This document shows, piece after piece, positions 53,340 to 59,424 of a DNA stretch of 64,000 bases. Made by a program: the position numbers and the translations under genes. The stretch covers positions 434,001-498,000 of the forward strand of contig NZ_JAGWCB010000010.1 of the NCBI RefSeq assembly GCF_020387415.1, in the 5' to 3' direction. The notes beneath the pieces were generated by a model. It was not told where the DNA came from and did not search any database. It saw only the letters and a program-made list of their open reading frames with translations. The stretch is from Ideonella benzenivorans (GTDB lineage: Bacteria > Pseudomonadota > Gammaproteobacteria > Burkholderiales > Burkholderiaceae_C). Position 1 is the first letter of the stretch, and every line of letters starts with the position of its first letter.

Positions 53340-53711
53340 ATGCAAAACCTGCTTCTTCTGCTGCAGGGCCTGGAGGTGGAACTGCACCACCCCGGCACAC
53401 GCTGCAGCCCCGCGCGCCTGGACGCGCTGCTCCATCCCCAATTCCACGAGATCGGCCGATCCGGCCGCGCCTACGACCGCGAAACGGTGCTGGGCTTCCT
53501 CGCCTCCCTGAGCGAGCACCCGCCGGTGGAGTCGGAGGGGTTTGAGGTGGCGCTGCTGGCGCCCCAAGTCGCCCTGCTGACCTACCGCAGCGCCCATCGG
53601 CGAGCCGATGGGACTTTGCATCTGCACACCCATCGCTCGTCGGTGTGGGTGCAGGACGGCGGTGGGTGGCGGCTGAGGTATCACCAGGGAACGCCGTCAT
53701 CCTCAAATTGA
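53340..53711 (+). CDS. DUF4440 / NTF2-like protein
   Basis: A 123-residue protein matching the DUF4440 branch of the NTF2-like fold: DALLHPQFHEIGRSGRAYDRETVLGFL and a C-terminal SSVWVQDGGGWRLRYHQGTP. Function is not known; such proteins often bind small ligands or act as accessory units. It diverges from the glt operon across the enhancer region and is the last high-GC gene before the cassette array. Confidence 0.8.
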   Translation: MQNLLLLLQGLEVELHHPGTRCSPARLDALLHPQFHEIGRSGRAYDRETVLGFLASLSEHPPVESEGFEVALLAPQVALLTYRSAHRRADGTLHLHTHRSSVWVQDGGGWRLRYHQGTPSSSN

Positions 53712-53881
53712 CGGACTCAAGCCCGCTTTGTCTCGATGAGCCATTTGTCGTTCTGTTACGCAGTGATACCGTGTGAGGAATTGATCGGAAATTCAACCGC
53801 GACAGCTACATGGCGAAGATTCAATCGGGGATGTTCGGGAGCACCCCAGTTGTTGGTGGCGCAAAGTGGGGTCGATAACTA

Positions 53882-53888
53882 GTTAGGC
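53882..53888 (+). other. First cassette core site (GTTAGGC)
   Basis: GTTAGGC matches the GTTRRRY core that begins integron cassettes and lies 15 bp before the acetyltransferase start. The 170 bp to the left (53712-53881) show no gene and no clear attC partner, so this may be the end of an attI site or of a lost upstream attC. Confidence 0.55.
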
Positions 53889-53902
53889 ATCAAGAAATCC
53901 TT

Positions 53903-54313
53903 ATGCACATTATCGAGAACCCTCCGGTCAAAAGACTTATGCCCCTGCAAGAGATGCTTGAGCGCGAGCGTGCTCCAGGCATCGTTGACATTTGGGTGTG
54001 TGTCAAACCGTACTACCTTGCCATCGAACATGATGGCGACATAGTTGGCGTCGCTTCCATTAGCATGGGCGAGGATGTAGCAGAAATCTACAAAATCTAT
54101 GTTTTGCCAAATCATAGAAGGAGCGGTTTTGGTAAGGCGTTGTTTGGCGAGACACTGAATCGCCTGTTCAACAGTGGAATTAGCGAAATCCTTGTGGAGA
54201 CTGCTAGCGCAGAAGGCTTTGCACTTGTTAAATCTTCGGCTTCCAATTTTCAGCTGGTTGAATACGGCCCTGATAAATATGGCATCCAACTTAATGTGCG
54301 GACTGACACGTAA
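53903..54313 (+). CDS. GNAT-family N-acetyltransferase (cassette 1)
   Basis: A 136-residue GNAT protein. The acetyl-CoA-binding pattern is clear: IVGVASISMGEDVAEIYKIYVLPNHRRSGFGKALF (motif A, RRSGFGK, about residues 72-90), followed by the ILVETAS beta strand. The substrate is unknown; cassette-borne GNATs include antibiotic and toxin-modifying enzymes, but nothing here points to one. The G+C and codon use are much lower than in the flanks. It lies 15 bp after the core site and ends 60 bp before attC1. Confidence 0.85.
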   Translation: MHIIENPPVKRLMPLQEMLERERAPGIVDIWVCVKPYYLAIEHDGDIVGVASISMGEDVAEIYKIYVLPNHRRSGFGKALFGETLNRLFNSGISEILVETASAEGFALVKSSASNFQLVEYGPDKYGIQLNVRTDT

Positions 54314-54372
54314 AGTGCAACACCCAAAACTGTCGGTCAGGGCATCATGAAAGCCTTCCACCTCGCGCCCCA

Positions 54373-54485
54373 GCCTAACTGTCGGTTCAACGCGGACGCC
54401 AACATAGGCCATGCCTTCGGCATTTTCACGGCCTATGTTGGTTCCCTCCAGCCTTCGGCTTCCGGCGCCGGTTAACCTGGGCGTT
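54373..54485 (+). repeat. attC site 1 (interrupted in its R' core)
   Basis: Starts with the inverse core GCCTAAC (54373-54379), followed by CGGTTCAACGCGGACGCC. It ends with GGCGCCGGTTAACCTGGGCGTT, which pairs back with one bulged base, the usual attC hallmark. Inside lies a further dyad, AACATAGGCC (54401-54410) with GGCCTATGTT (54430-54439). The R' core is split: GTT at 54483-54485 is followed by the inserted element, and GTTAGCC resumes at 54644-54650. Confidence 0.75.
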
Positions 54486-54643
54486 GAGGCTGTAGCAAAA
54501 CCCTTTGAAGCGCTGATTAGATGCTTGTGCTGAAAGATCGAACGCTCAGATCGACCGAGGATCGCCGATCGAGGGATGGGCAAGGGGTGAAGGACCCCTG
54601 GATTCCGAGTGGTTCTTCATGATCGGACTTTTTCTACAACCTC
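54486..54643. mobile_element. ~158-bp MITE-like element, copy a, inserted in an attC core
   Basis: The ends GAGGCTGTAG and CTACAACCTC form terminal inverted repeats (9 of 10 pairs, continuing into an A/T run), and GTT is duplicated on both sides. The element is about 85-90% identical to copy b (55724-55880) by eye. It carries no complete gene; a short minus-strand frame reads RSERSIFQ. Length and ends fit a non-autonomous miniature transposable element that targets the attC core. Confidence 0.65.
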
Positions 54644-54665
54644 GTTAGCCCTCAGAGATGCAGTC

Positions 54666-55664
54666 ATGGCTACCCCTCGCGTTTTCATCAGCTCCACCTG
54701 CTACGACCTCAAGTACATCCGGGAGAACCTGCGGTACTTCGTCAAGACCCTCGGGTACGAGCCGATCCTCAGCGAAGACGGCAGCGTCTTCTACAGCCCC
54801 GCGCTCCACACTCATGATGCGTGCCTGACCGAGATCCCAAACACTCAGATGTTTGTGCTCATCATCGGCGGTCGTTATGGTGGAAAGTTTAAAGAGTTGG
54901 ACTCGTCGATAACTAATGCTGAGTACCGGGAAGCTGTTAGACTCAAGATCCCAGTGTTCGCTCTAGTGGACAGCGCCGTCTACAACGAACATCACCTCTA
55001 TCTCAAGAACGCAAAGAACACGGACGTCGACCTCACTAAACTGGTGTTCCCGGCCGTCGATTCCACCAAGGTTTTTGACTTCATTGACGAAGTCAGAGGT
55101 TCGACAATCAACAATGCCTTGGTTCCGTTCCGAGACTTCGGAGACATTGAGAGCTACTTGCGACAGCAGTGGGCAGCAATGATGTTTGACTTTCTCAGTC
55201 AGCGAAACGAGGGTCGGCGAGTTTCTGACACTCTCGCGACGCTCGCCGAGATGAACAGTCGTATCGAGATACTCTCAAAGCAGATCTTGGTGTCTGTCGG
55301 AACCGAGGATGCCAAGATTGATGCCGAGCTGTATGAAGAGATGCTCACGTCGGAGGCCATCCGCGACTTGGCGTATTGCAAGGTAAGGCCGACCCCAGTC
55401 CACGTCTTCGTCAATTCTTCCTATCGAGCCTGCGCCAAGTCACTCGGACTCAATCTCAAGATACTTGAGAGAGAGGGCAGCTCCATCTCTCCGAACGGCG
55501 AAATATCGAGGTATCGCTTCACCAAGCAATCCGCCGACTACAGGGCATTGAGACAAAACATGCTCGCGCTTCTCAAGGCTCGAGGAACAACGGCAGAGAA
55601 GTACCTCGGCAACCGGCCGAAAGCCATGCCGGGCGAACTTGAGCATGACGAAACTGAGGGCTAA
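54666..55664 (+). CDS. DUF4062-domain protein (cassette 2)
   Basis: A 332-residue protein whose first 90 residues match the DUF4062 pattern: RVFISSTCYDLKYIRENLRYFV, PILSEDGSVFY, and NTQMFVLIIGGRYGGK. This domain resembles TIR-like effector folds and often occurs in defence-related or stress-response proteins. The rest (about 100-332) has no recognised domain. It starts 16 bp after the GTTAGCC core and ends inside attC2, as cassette genes usually do. The ATG at 54666 is the first Met matching the domain start. Confidence 0.82.
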   Translation: MATPRVFISSTCYDLKYIRENLRYFVKTLGYEPILSEDGSVFYSPALHTHDACLTEIPNTQMFVLIIGGRYGGKFKELDSSITNAEYREAVRLKIPVFALVDSAVYNEHHLYLKNAKNTDVDLTKLVFPAVDSTKVFDFIDEVRGSTINNALVPFRDFGDIESYLRQQWAAMMFDFLSQRNEGRRVSDTLATLAEMNSRIEILSKQILVSVGTEDAKIDAELYEEMLTSEAIRDLAYCKVRPTPVHVFVNSSYRACAKSLGLNLKILEREGSSISPNGEISRYRFTKQSADYRALRQNMLALLKARGTTAEKYLGNRPKAMPGELEHDETEG

Positions 55665-55723
55665 TTCCTCCATCGAGTGGACATTCCCATACAAGCCGGG
55701 TCATGCCGCTCATGTCGAACGTT
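55659..55723 (+). repeat. attC site 2 (interrupted in its R' core)
   Basis: Begins GGCTAATTCCTCCATCGAG, overlapping the DUF4062 stop codon, and ends CTCATGTCGAACGTT. This is very close to the common attC layout GCTAACnnnTCCATCGAG...CTCATGTCAAACGTTAGGC. GTT (55721-55723) is followed by element copy b, and the core resumes as GTTAGTC at 55881-55887. Confidence 0.75.
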
Positions 55724-55880
55724 GAGGCTGTAGAAAAATCCGCTGAAGCGCCGATTTGATGCTTGGGCTGAAAAATCGACCGCTCGGATCGATCCAGGAT
55801 CGCCGATCGACGGCTGGGCAAGGGGTGAAAGACCCCTGAATTTTGGGTGGTTCTTGATGATCGGACTTTTCTACAACCTC
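55724..55880. mobile_element. ~157-bp MITE-like element, copy b, inserted in an attC core
   Basis: Same element as copy a, one T shorter near its right end, with the same terminal inverted repeats and the same GTT duplication. It is inserted at the identical place of a different attC site. The matching minus-strand frame again reads RSERSIFQ. Differences between copies suggest independent insertions, not an array duplication. Confidence 0.65.
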
Positions 55881-55897
55881 GTTAGTCATCCTCCATC

Positions 55898-56557
55898 ATG
55901 CGTAACCTCAAGTCTCTCGCTCTCGTTTTCATAGGTTTGGCATTCTTGGCGGGATGTGCAGGCCTGATGGCATGGGCTGTGTACGCCTTCTTTCAGTACC
56001 TCAACACCATTCCGAAAGAGCTTGCCGCGCCGCTGATAGCCGCTTCGGCTACCGTGTTTGTTGCCACGGCAACGGTAATGGTGGGTCGGTACTACGAGAG
56101 GAAGAAGGAACTCGACTCCCTGTACCGGGACAAGAAGACCGAGATCTATGATGAGTTCCTCAAGGAGTTCTTTGCGCTCTCTTTCAATTCTGGCGAGGAC
56201 AGCGCGAAGGCAGAGAAGGATCTGGTTCCTTTCTTTCGAGATTTCACGCGCAAGCTTGTCCTATGGAGCGGCCCAGAAGTAATCGAAGCTTTCGTCGCCT
56301 GGAAGGATCACCTCGCCAAGGGAAACCCAGACGCGAAGTCGATCTTCCTCACGGAAGCATTCCTGCTTGCAATCCGCAAAGACCTGCGACACACGAACAG
56401 GTCGCTCCGCAAAGGGTTCTTTGCTCGCCTGTTCCTTCGCGAGGGCGCGCTATTCCTTGCAATGGCGGAGAAAGATCCGAACGTTACGTTGTCTGCGCTC
56501 GCGGAGATTGAGAATGCACTTGCGCTGCAAGCAACAGCGGTTCAGAAAGGCAGCTAA
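55898..56557 (+). CDS. Two-TM membrane protein of unknown function (cassette 3)
   Basis: A 219-residue protein with two predicted membrane helices (about 6-30 and 38-63), then a charged cytoplasmic region (YYERKKELDSLYRDKKTEIYDEFLKEFF) likely helical or coiled-coil. A C-terminal domain of about 130 residues follows. No known family is recognised. The stop lies inside attC3 and the gene begins 11 bp after the GTTAGTC core, so it is a whole cassette. Confidence 0.75.
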   Translation: MRNLKSLALVFIGLAFLAGCAGLMAWAVYAFFQYLNTIPKELAAPLIAASATVFVATATVMVGRYYERKKELDSLYRDKKTEIYDEFLKEFFALSFNSGEDSAKAEKDLVPFFRDFTRKLVLWSGPEVIEAFVAWKDHLAKGNPDAKSIFLTEAFLLAIRKDLRHTNRSLRKGFFARLFLREGALFLAMAEKDPNVTLSALAEIENALALQATAVQKGS

Positions 56558-56613
56558 CACCCCCGTCAAGGGGACGTCCCCCAAGCGGGCGACCCATACG
56601 AAAGTTGTTAGGC
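56552..56613 (+). repeat. attC site 3 (intact)
   Basis: A compact 62-bp site from AGCTAAC (overlapping the stop of cassette 3) through GTCAAGGGGACGTCCCC to the complete core GTTAGGC (56607-56613). The internal GGGGACGTCCCC stem is characteristic. It is the only one of the three sites without an inserted element. Confidence 0.7.
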
Positions 56614-56661
56614 CACACAGAACAACCGTCCACCAGCATCAACACCTCAAGGGAGACCATC

Positions 56662-57366
56662 TTGGCCACAAGTGCAACATATCCGAAGATCGGCCGAAAG
56701 ATCTGGGCGCTGGTCCGAGATCGATTCAAGAAATCGTTGCCTTCAACCGTGACACCAACATTCATCGGCTCGTTGGCGACCATGACAGACGCGTCGGCAA
56801 AAGCGAATGTCATCAGTCCGCTTCGGCAACTTGGCCTACTGGACGACGCGAACAAGCCGACTGAACTGGCAAGTCGGTGGAGGCACGACGACGAGTACAA
56901 GTCCGTGTGCGACGAGATACGCAGCAAGACATATCCCAGCGAGCTGCTGGAAGCTTTCCCAGACGCCGATTCAGGCCAAAAGAAGCAGATTGAGACGTGG
57001 TTCATGAAGGTTGGCCACGTTGGCGAGTCAGCAGCGCGGCTGTACACAGACACGTACATGCTGTTGACGGAAGCCGACGCTGGGAAGCTTGCGGAGAAGG
57101 CATCGAACGGCGGCCAGGCCAAGGCCTCAGCGACGAAGACTCCTCAGAAGCGGCGCAGCGCTCAGAAGGTCGAGAAGTCGGACCAGCCACCTGCTCTTCC
57201 TGCACACCCGCCTGCGCCTGTGGATCCGCCACAAAGCCACGGAACTCGTCGTCTGCCGGCGATCCACATCGACGTTCAGGTTCACATCTCCCCAGAGACA
57301 CCACCCGAACAGATTGACCGAATCTTTGAGAGCATGGCCAAGCATCTTGGCACCTACATCAAGTAG
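56662..57366 (+). CDS. DUF5343 protein (cassette 4, first gene)
   Basis: A 234-residue protein. The first 150 residues match the DUF5343 pattern: YPKIGRKIWALVRDRFKKSLP, ISPLRQLGLLDDANKPTELASRWRHDD, SELLEAFPDAD and a final helix (ESAARLYTDTYMLLTEAD). A basic, Pro/Ala-rich linker (about 152-205) and a short C-terminal segment (AIHIDVQVHISPETPPEQIDRIFESMAKHLG) follow. Function is unknown. The start is the TTG at 56662, seven bases after GGGAGA; the open frame extends upstream into attC3. It lies 4 bp before the next gene. Confidence 0.78.
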   Translation: MATSATYPKIGRKIWALVRDRFKKSLPSTVTPTFIGSLATMTDASAKANVISPLRQLGLLDDANKPTELASRWRHDDEYKSVCDEIRSKTYPSELLEAFPDADSGQKKQIETWFMKVGHVGESAARLYTDTYMLLTEADAGKLAEKASNGGQAKASATKTPQKRRSAQKVEKSDQPPALPAHPPAPVDPPQSHGTRRLPAIHIDVQVHISPETPPEQIDRIFESMAKHLGTYIK

Positions 57367-57370
57367 ATTA

Positions 57371-57889
57371 ATGCCCGACCACCCGGTTACAGACGTTCTA
57401 TCGCTTGCGGCTTCTCTCCAAAAGGCAGCGGCTGATGTTGTGCGACCATCGTCGGAGATCGCGCCATCTCGCAGCGAGCCCATTGTCTATATGGCCTTAG
57501 TACGAGGGACAAGGGGCTACATTGAGCGAGTTGCGCACCAAGTAAATGGTGCCTACGCCAACGGCTGGTACGACGCAAGCGCCGTTATGCTCCGCCGGCT
57601 GATCGAGACACTCATCATTGAGTGCTTTGAGGCCCACAAAATTGAGGCCAAGATCAAGGACTCCAGCGGGAACTACTACTTCCTGAAAGACTTGGTCGAT
57701 CTGGCGTTGAGTGAGCACTCTTGGACACTAGGAAGAAGCGTGCGATCGGCTCTTCCAAAGCTCAAGGAGGTCGGCGATAAATCTGCTCACAGCCGCCGAT
57801 ACAACGCGCACCGGGAGGACATAGACAAGCTACTCAGAGAGATACGAGACACAGTGCAAGAGCTACTCGTGCTCGCTCGATTGAAGTAG
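57371..57889 (+). CDS. HEPN/DUF4145-like protein (cassette 4, second gene)
   Basis: A 172-residue, mostly helical protein. The segment YDASAVMLRRLIETLIIECFEAHKIEAKIK and the C-terminal LKEVGDKSAHSRRYNAHREDIDKLLREI resemble DUF4145/HEPN-type domains, with GDKSAH at the usual GNxAxH position and an R-x4-H (RRYNAH) pattern. HEPN proteins often are RNases in toxin-antitoxin or defence systems; that role is inferred here. The ATG is 4 bp after the DUF5343 stop, so the two form an operon. An IS3-type end begins one base after the stop. Confidence 0.72.
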   Translation: MPDHPVTDVLSLAASLQKAAADVVRPSSEIAPSRSEPIVYMALVRGTRGYIERVAHQVNGAYANGWYDASAVMLRRLIETLIIECFEAHKIEAKIKDSSGNYYFLKDLVDLALSEHSWTLGRSVRSALPKLKEVGDKSAHSRRYNAHREDIDKLLREIRDTVQELLVLARLK

Positions 57890-57890
57890 C

Positions 57891-58058
57891 TGAACCGCCC
57901 CGGATTTCACGGAGGCCAGTTGGCTAAGTGTCAGGCCACGGCCTTGTCGTAACTGTCCCCCATGGAGCCCACGTATGGTTCGATAGCCTGCTGACTTGGC
58001 TGCTGTTGGTTGGTCCGCCCGCCGTGTCTGCGGCCTACTTTGCTGCTTTGCAGCGGCG
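57891..58058 (-). pseudogene. Remnant of an IS3-family insertion sequence
   Basis: TGAACCGCCCCGGATTTCACGGAGG at 57891-57915 resembles the terminal repeat of IS3-family elements of this group. On the minus strand a short frame reads QAIEPYVGSMGDSYDKAVA and then stops (57931-57933), which is the DDE transposase block normally reading GSVGDSYDNALAE. The rest of the transposase and the other end are missing. It separates the cassette array from the DctD-like gene. Confidence 0.65.
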
Positions 58059-58093
58059 CGGCTTCCCAACTTCAGCCCTTGAGTCCTGAGCCA

Positions 58094-59424
<1,331 letters not shown>

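What the first reader, a model, noticed from the sequence alone, without database searches (positions are those of the whole stretch)
53882..57890. Integron cassette array with defence-like genes and no integrase nearby
Four low-G+C cassettes with three attC sites sit inside a high-G+C chromosome between glt and dctBD. The contents (GNAT, DUF4062, two-TM protein, DUF5343 plus HEPN-like pair) are unrelated to the flanks and resemble accessory defence or stress genes. Known: cassette arrays in other bacteria can carry phage-defence genes. Inference: this array is a possible source of new ones.
Basis: partly seen in the sequence, partly recalled or inferred. Interest (0 to 1): 0.8.

Follow-up and report, generated by a model that had tools for sequence, protein, structure and literature searches.

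The report
Cassette array on an orphan attI
A small gene-capture array in an Ideonella chromosome sits on its own docking site without the enzyme that normally lies beside it, and related species carry other such stand-alone docking sites, which suggests that one integron may be spread over several places in a genome.

Summary
Window 53699-53888 is homologous to integron attI sites yet has no integrase gene beside it, and the cassettes start at its core GTTAGGC (53882). The genome belongs to Ideonella. attI units of two related types (A, B) were found 20 times in four Ideonella genomes: 4 beside intI, 16 orphan, at up to 12 chromosomal places. In the stretches searched, none of the 16 orphans has intI or the LexA-type box that all 4 linked units have. 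At orthologous orphan loci, this one included, species agree up to the crossover and then differ, as at the intI-linked locus. Best reading: orphan attI sites are, or were, filled in trans by an integrase encoded elsewhere. In this genome the matching integrase has lost its HxxR stretch; a related intact one exists. How the units spread is unexplained. A covariance model finds attC1 strongly, attC2 weakly, attC3 not at all; attC1 and attC2 are each split at GTT by a 157-158 bp hairpin element. The defence idea is plausible but untested. No paper found in ten searches of an open-access library describes dispersed orphan attI sites.

The parts
53340..53711 (+). left flank gene (DUF4440); its 3' end runs into the attI unit
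   Evidence: PF14534, 1.6e-17; homology with G006 and G009 at this locus stops at 53695-53696
53699..53888 (+). orphan type-A attI unit; core GTTAGGC 53882-53888, crossover between G53882 and T53883 (position of the crossover is recalled from known integrons)
   Evidence: 75% identical over 152 bp to the intI-linked site of the same genome (C17); 81-90% to five orphan copies and 70-74% to three more in this and related genomes
53903..54313 (+). cassette 1: GNAT acetyltransferase
   Evidence: PF00583 1.3e-12
54373..54650 (+). attC1, split by a hairpin element at its GTT (right end GTTAGCC 54644-54650)
   Evidence: R1 model 47.1 bits, E 1.2e-8; intact homologue in G001
54486..54643 (+). MITE-like hairpin element copy 1 (158 bp), flanked GTT/GTT
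54666..55664 (+). cassette 2: DUF4062 protein
   Evidence: PF13271 5.1e-22
55659..55887 (+). attC2 (weak), split by a hairpin element at its GTT
   Evidence: R1 14.5 bits, E 0.3
55724..55880 (+). MITE-like hairpin element copy 2 (157 bp), 87% identical to copy 1, flanked GTT/GTT
55898..56557 (+). cassette 3: 219-aa protein, hydrophobic N-terminus by eye, no Pfam match
   Evidence: 0 families; its stop codon overlaps the left box of attC3
56552..56613 (+). attC3 candidate (AGCTAAC ... GTTAGGC)
   Evidence: sequence only; not found by R1 at E<=10
56662..57366 (+). cassette 4, gene 1: DUF5343
   Evidence: PF17278 1.1e-9; PDC-M34A 4.4e-12
57371..57889 (+). cassette 4, gene 2: DUF4145
   Evidence: PF13643 1.7e-5; pair also in L153 and L154
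57890..57984 (.). fragment like the end of an IS3-family element (family recalled); may have replaced the last attC
   Evidence: a similar terminus stands before transposase-like ORFs in L130; matches two pieces downstream of the G001 C2 array

Best explanation
The block is a cassette array on an orphan attI site: the attI half of an integron platform without intI and without the LexA-type box found before intI. It is one of many such units in Ideonella genomes. Circular cassettes were inserted at its G|TT crossover, and others lost, by an integron integrase made elsewhere in the genome and acting in trans. Shown: the site, its homology to intI-linked sites, the missing intI and LexA-type box, and an orthologous orphan locus in a second species with different cassettes and a break at the crossover. 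Inferred: the enzyme acting in trans, expression of the cassettes from the unit, and a stress or defence role of the cargo. In this genome the cognate IntI-A (contig C17) has lost its HxxR stretch, so the array may now be frozen unless the intact C18 integrase accepts type-A sites.
For: attI homologues: 20 A/B units in 4 of 16 genus genomes. intI within the 2.6-6 kb searched upstream in 4 of 4 linked and 0 of 16 orphan units. LexA-type box CTGT-N8-ACAG within 180 bp in 4 of 4 linked, 0 of 16 orphan. Window locus: G000 and G001 are collinear at 90.6% up to the attI core and again from 58100 at 92%; the 80 bp before the crossover agree 69/80, the core 7/7, the next windows 35/99, 31/86, 21/119. 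The same break is seen in three genome pairs at a second orphan locus, in one pair at a third, and in three pairs at the intI-linked locus as control. attC hits downstream on the right strand in 11 of 16 orphan loci at E<0.02, and in a twelfth only at E 0.24-0.31 (five of these loci gave training sequences). A second set in G011: two orphans 90-92% identical to that genome's own linked attI, again breaking just after GTTAGGC.
Against: No integration was observed; the trans step is inferred from comparison. In G000 the cognate IntI-A lacks the HxxR stretch. No promoter-like site was found in 53600-53960. The window attI is about as similar to orphans at other loci (87% G006 C1, 86% G006 C10) as to its ortholog in G001 (86%). 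One orphan (G009 C56) has no GTT core. Identical DNA after three attI-B sites of G009 encodes a tyrosine recombinase and may be an insertion sequence, so I do not count it; it also stands after the crossover in the G009 member of the second locus. C14 of this genome and G013 show attI units with intI remnants, which favours decay of whole platforms as an origin. One E-type orphan of G011 keeps the LexA-type box, and the D-type linked attI has no exact box. The A/B carriers are four related genomes, so independent events are few.
Confidence: 0.6

Rival explanations
1. Relic: whole platforms (intI, attI, cassettes) were copied to several loci and each copy lost intI by deletion; the cassettes date from before that loss and nothing acts in trans.
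For: Intermediates exist: C17 intI-A with an internal deletion, C14 attI with intI fragments, G013 L135 with a partly deleted intI in a 679-bp stretch 98% identical to L134.
Against: Cassettes differ between species at orthologous orphan loci whose left junction is shared, so content changed after the orphan state arose. No intI match (E<=1e-3) upstream of 16 of 16 A/B orphans in 2.6-6 kb. Left edges are mostly sharp and shared within a type, though some units share 70-100 bp more.
Confidence: 0.27
2. Plain CALIN: cassettes inserted off-target at a chance (attG-like) chromosomal site.
For: No intI nearby; off-target insertion is a proposed origin of CALINs (PMC8618304, passages seen; CALINs at several loci in Xanthomonas, PMC12444791, passages seen).
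Against: About 190 bp before the first cassette are homologous to intI-linked and other orphan attI units.
Confidence: 0.06
3. The array or its attI unit is carried by another mobile element that inserts attI plus cassettes into new places; turnover reflects replacement of whole elements or homologous exchange between arrays.
For: The window locus has a type-A unit in G000 and G001 but a type-B unit in G006, while G001 and G006 share the distal end of the array. Units of a type share left edges.
Against: I saw no transposase tied to the units and no shared right edge, but did not search for them systematically. Identity breaks at the G|TT crossover rather than at the unit's left edge in orthologous pairs. 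The G006 locus is split over two contigs, so its adjacency is not shown.
Confidence: 0.07

Closest known systems
Sedentary chromosomal integron (intI + attI + cassettes)
   Same: attI homologous to intI-linked attI, attC-bounded cassettes, break of synteny at the crossover
   Different: no intI and no LexA-type box at the site; several attI sites per genome
[quoted passage not shown]
   Same: attC cassettes without intI; scattered loci as reported for Xanthomonas (PMC12444791, passages seen)
   Different: anchored on a recognisable attI; the CALIN passages that I saw report no attI, and IntegronFinder 2.0 states that attI is poorly described and not detected outside class 1 (PMC9024848, passages seen)
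attG insertion sites and delta-attI cassettes
   Same: integrase acting at sites other than its own attI (PMC12901181, abstract and passages seen; the attG paper of Loot et al. seen only as a reference there)
   Different: attG sites are described there as strongly divergent from classical att sites, and delta-attI sites are part of cassettes; here attI units of about 160-190 bp lie at chromosomal places, some shared between species

Membership tests
complete integron | intI adjacent to attI | tested here: not met
complete integron | attI site at the head of the array | tested here: met
   by homology to intI-linked attI; first cassette starts at GTTAGGC; function not tested
complete integron | cassettes bounded by attC sites | tested here: met
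   attC1 E 1.2e-8; attC2 weak, attC3 not detected
CALIN | at least two attC sites (threshold quoted in PMC12444791) | tested here: inconclusive
   one strong, one weak site
CALIN | no proximal intI | tested here: met
orphan attI used in trans (proposed here) | insertion at the orphan site by an integrase made elsewhere | not testable with these tools
   comparative evidence only
anti-phage defence system | match to a known system | tested here: not met
   only candidate profile PDC-M34A and a weak PDC-M16A
anti-phage defence system | protection against phage | not testable with these tools
   no assay

The most novel reading that the evidence does not exclude
Ideonella runs a distributed integron: one integrase fills many attI sites at different places on the chromosomes in trans, and the attI unit itself spreads as a short piece that leaves the integrase and its SOS-type promoter behind, so that each chromosomal place becomes an independent landing and expression site.
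Probability: 0.4. Interest if true: 0.8.

Novelty: new variant of a known kind. Interest (0 to 1): 0.6.

Why it matters
Where CALINs come from (off-target insertion, loss of intI, rearrangement; listed in PMC8618304, passage seen) is an open question. Arrays that keep a recognisable attI make it testable. If they are filled in trans, an integron need not be one place in a genome, cassettes could be expressed from several sites, and some arrays now scored as CALINs by programs that do not detect attI outside class 1 would be live platforms.

Tried and rejected
Identical DNA after three attI-B sites of G009 first looked like one cassette placed at three sites. Reading it showed a tyrosine recombinase ORF followed by another long ORF (IS91-like, recalled), so I dropped it as proof. 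Home-made attC finders were crude and gave way to a covariance model; the versions had 0 hits in 50-54 kb of window flank. Rfam gave nothing at gathering score in 53650-58100. The hairpin element had no match in plasmids. DUF5343 and the 219-aa ORF had no plasmid match; DUF4062 matched 7 plasmid records at 29-39% identity. PDB sequences gave no meaningful DUF4062 match (one at E 0.23). Folds: DUF4062 model pLDDT 41, not searched; DUF5343 pLDDT 67.6, Foldseek against PDB 0 matches at E<=0.001, best E 1.1 to MarR-type regulators. In the all-against-all comparisons of array DNA I noticed no near-identical whole cassette at two attI loci of one genome apart from the G009 case; not every shared piece was identified.

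Paper searches: 'orphan attI' held by 0 papers; 'Ideonella' with 'integron' 2 papers, by titles and abstract starts not about Ideonella integrons. Papers of subscription journals are mostly not held, so absence from print is not shown.
Full report
What is there. The window is part of contig C9 of a 4.49 Mb genome in 21 contigs. A scan of named genomes with the core of the site described below hit only Ideonella (3 contigs of I. oryzae NS12-5, 1 of Ideonella sp. B508-1), and those contig lengths equal contigs of G006 and G009, which genome search places in the same genus as the window; so the genus is taken as Ideonella. The block 53699-57889 has G+C 0.51-0.56 against 0.67 and 0.71 on the two sides. 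It holds GNAT, DUF4062, a 219-aa ORF without Pfam match, and a DUF5343-DUF4145 pair.

attC sites. A covariance model was built from nine attC sites of other Ideonella arrays, none from the window. In the 64 kb window, filters off, it gives 23 matches at E up to 10. attC1 is first (47.1 bits, E 1.2e-8), attC2 second (14.5 bits, E 0.3); the other 21 lie outside the array, the best at 14.3 bits. attC3 is not among them. So one site is firm, one weak and one rests on motif alone.

The hairpin elements. attC1 and attC2 are each cut by a 157-158 bp element with inverted ends, 87% alike. An uncut homologue of attC1 in G001 shows the empty target: the element sits in the GTT of the crossover, with GTT on both sides. 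Of eight copies examined in G000, G001 and G009, six have GTT on the left and seven on the right, and by eye most follow attC-like sequence; a partial 66-base match in G047 was left out. A search of 100 relatives found matches in 4 genomes, G047 being of another genus.

The attI unit. The stretch before the first cassette matches the stretch between intI and the first cassette on contig C17 of the same genome (75% over 152 bp). As a query over 100 relatives it hits 5 genomes, all of the genus; the hit in G004 is only 24 bp and is dropped. The carriers are G000 (own), G001, G006 and G009. A second type (B), found because the G006 copy of the DUF4440 locus carries it, occurs in the same four of 16 genus genomes. 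Together there are 20 units: four beside intI (type A in G000, G001 and G006; type B in G009; all four at one locus by shared flanks) and 16 orphans. By shared or unshared upstream flanks (up to 8 kb compared) they fall into up to 12 places; orthology of the single ones was not tested further.

Orphans against linked units. tblastn with five integrases (E<=1e-3) finds intI upstream of 4 of 4 linked and 0 of 16 orphan units, in 2.6-6 kb searched. A LexA-type box CTGT-N8-ACAG lies within 180 bp upstream in 4 of 4 linked and 0 of 16 orphan units (the motif is recalled). A palindrome CCCCC-N4-GGGGG stands at the left edge of all 8 type-B units and in the 3 linked type-A units, but in none of the 9 orphan type-A units at that place. 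attC hits on the right strand follow 11 of the 16 orphans at E<0.02, window included, and G001 C2 only at E 0.24-0.31 (five of these loci supplied training sequences). The four without are G006 C10, G006 C29, G009 C56 and G009 C148; three of them have under 700 bp of contig left, and C56 lacks the core.

Turnover. At the window locus G000 and G001 are collinear up to the attI core and again from 58100. Before the crossover 69 of 80 columns agree; after the core 35/99, 31/86 and 21/119. The same break is seen in three pairs of genomes at a second orphan locus (G000 C16, G001 C1:1610974, G009 C27; in G009 an IS-like insertion stands after the crossover), in one pair at a third (G001 C2, G006 C1, where only about 0.4 kb of left flank is shared), and in three pairs at the intI-linked locus, which serves as control. 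G001 and G006 share the distal part of the window-locus array (94% over 722 bp, which runs into dctD), but G006 is split over two contigs there. G011 and G014 have the dctD-type gene about 0.3 kb from the glt-type gene, without array. G009 has other DNA between DUF4440 and dctD.

Beyond types A and B. An attC search of five congeners, G001 included, found matches at E<=0.05 in all five; the other congeners were not scanned. In G011, two arrays on other contigs start with a unit 90-92% identical to that genome's own linked attI, breaking just after GTTAGGC. A third is 73% like the linked attI of G014 and keeps the LexA-type box, while the linked attI of G011 has no exact box; these are exceptions to the LexA rule above. 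In these types the left edge is CCCTTGGCA, where the intI ribosome site would be (inference). Contig C14 of this genome has an attI like that of the C18 integron with only fragments of intI, and G013 L135 has a platform copy with a partly deleted intI. So whole platforms also decay here.

Which integrase. IntI-A is intact by alignment in G001 and G006; in G000 it lacks about 55 residues including the HTLRH stretch. IntI-B is intact in G009. The C18 integrase of G000 is intact and 64-71% identical to the intact IntI-A and IntI-B proteins. The window array may therefore be frozen, or served by C18.

Cargo. DUF5343 has relatives in 2 of 398 other genomes of the order drawn, one at about 50% and one marginal. 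Two viral contigs carry the DUF5343-DUF4145 pair together, in one case next to a phage integrase; the 50% relative in L130 has no DUF4145 beside it. A viral contig carries a 69% relative of the DUF4062 protein next to a phage integrase. A DUF4062 gene (35% identity over 216 residues) also sits among the G001 cassettes of the same locus. This fits accessory defence cargo but proves nothing.

Literature. Passages seen in PMC8618304, PMC12444791, PMC12901181 and PMC9024848 describe CALINs, attG and delta-attI cassettes. PMC9024848 says that attI is poorly described and not detected outside class 1. No held paper has the phrase 'orphan attI'. I therefore call this a new variant of a known kind.

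Noticed in passing
window 54486-54643 and 55724-55880; L011, L027, L028, L030, L031: A 157-158 bp hairpin element family at the GTT of attC-like sites, with GTT on both sides in most copies; an attC-targeting MITE, or an element that the integrase itself might move. No parent element found.
   Followed up: partly
L037 (G001), L107 and L105 (G006), L110 (G009), L115 (G000): Two further repeat families in or beside attC sites (TACAAGGGCTTCCCC..., CAGGGACTTCCCC...); nearby ORF pieces look like IS110/IS1111 transposase by eye, so probably attC-targeting IS1111 relatives.
   Followed up: no
L075, L077, L114 (G009): The same DNA with a tyrosine recombinase ORF follows the crossover of three different attI-B sites (520/520 and 381/384 identical); possibly an IS that targets attI.
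   Followed up: partly
L117 (G000 C14, about 2122-2600): attI of the C18 type with only fragments of intI: a platform caught in decay.
   Followed up: partly
L135 against L134 (G013): A second platform copy, 98% identical over 679 bp, with internally deleted intI.
   Followed up: no
L132 (G006 C23), just after the left gene of the second orphan locus: CCCCCAAATGG directly after the stop codon, like a cut-off left edge of a type-B unit, followed by other DNA; maybe a relic.
   Followed up: no
L116 (G000 C6, 4250 bp): A short contig with seven attC hits: a further array of this genome whose attI was not found on the contig.
   Followed up: no
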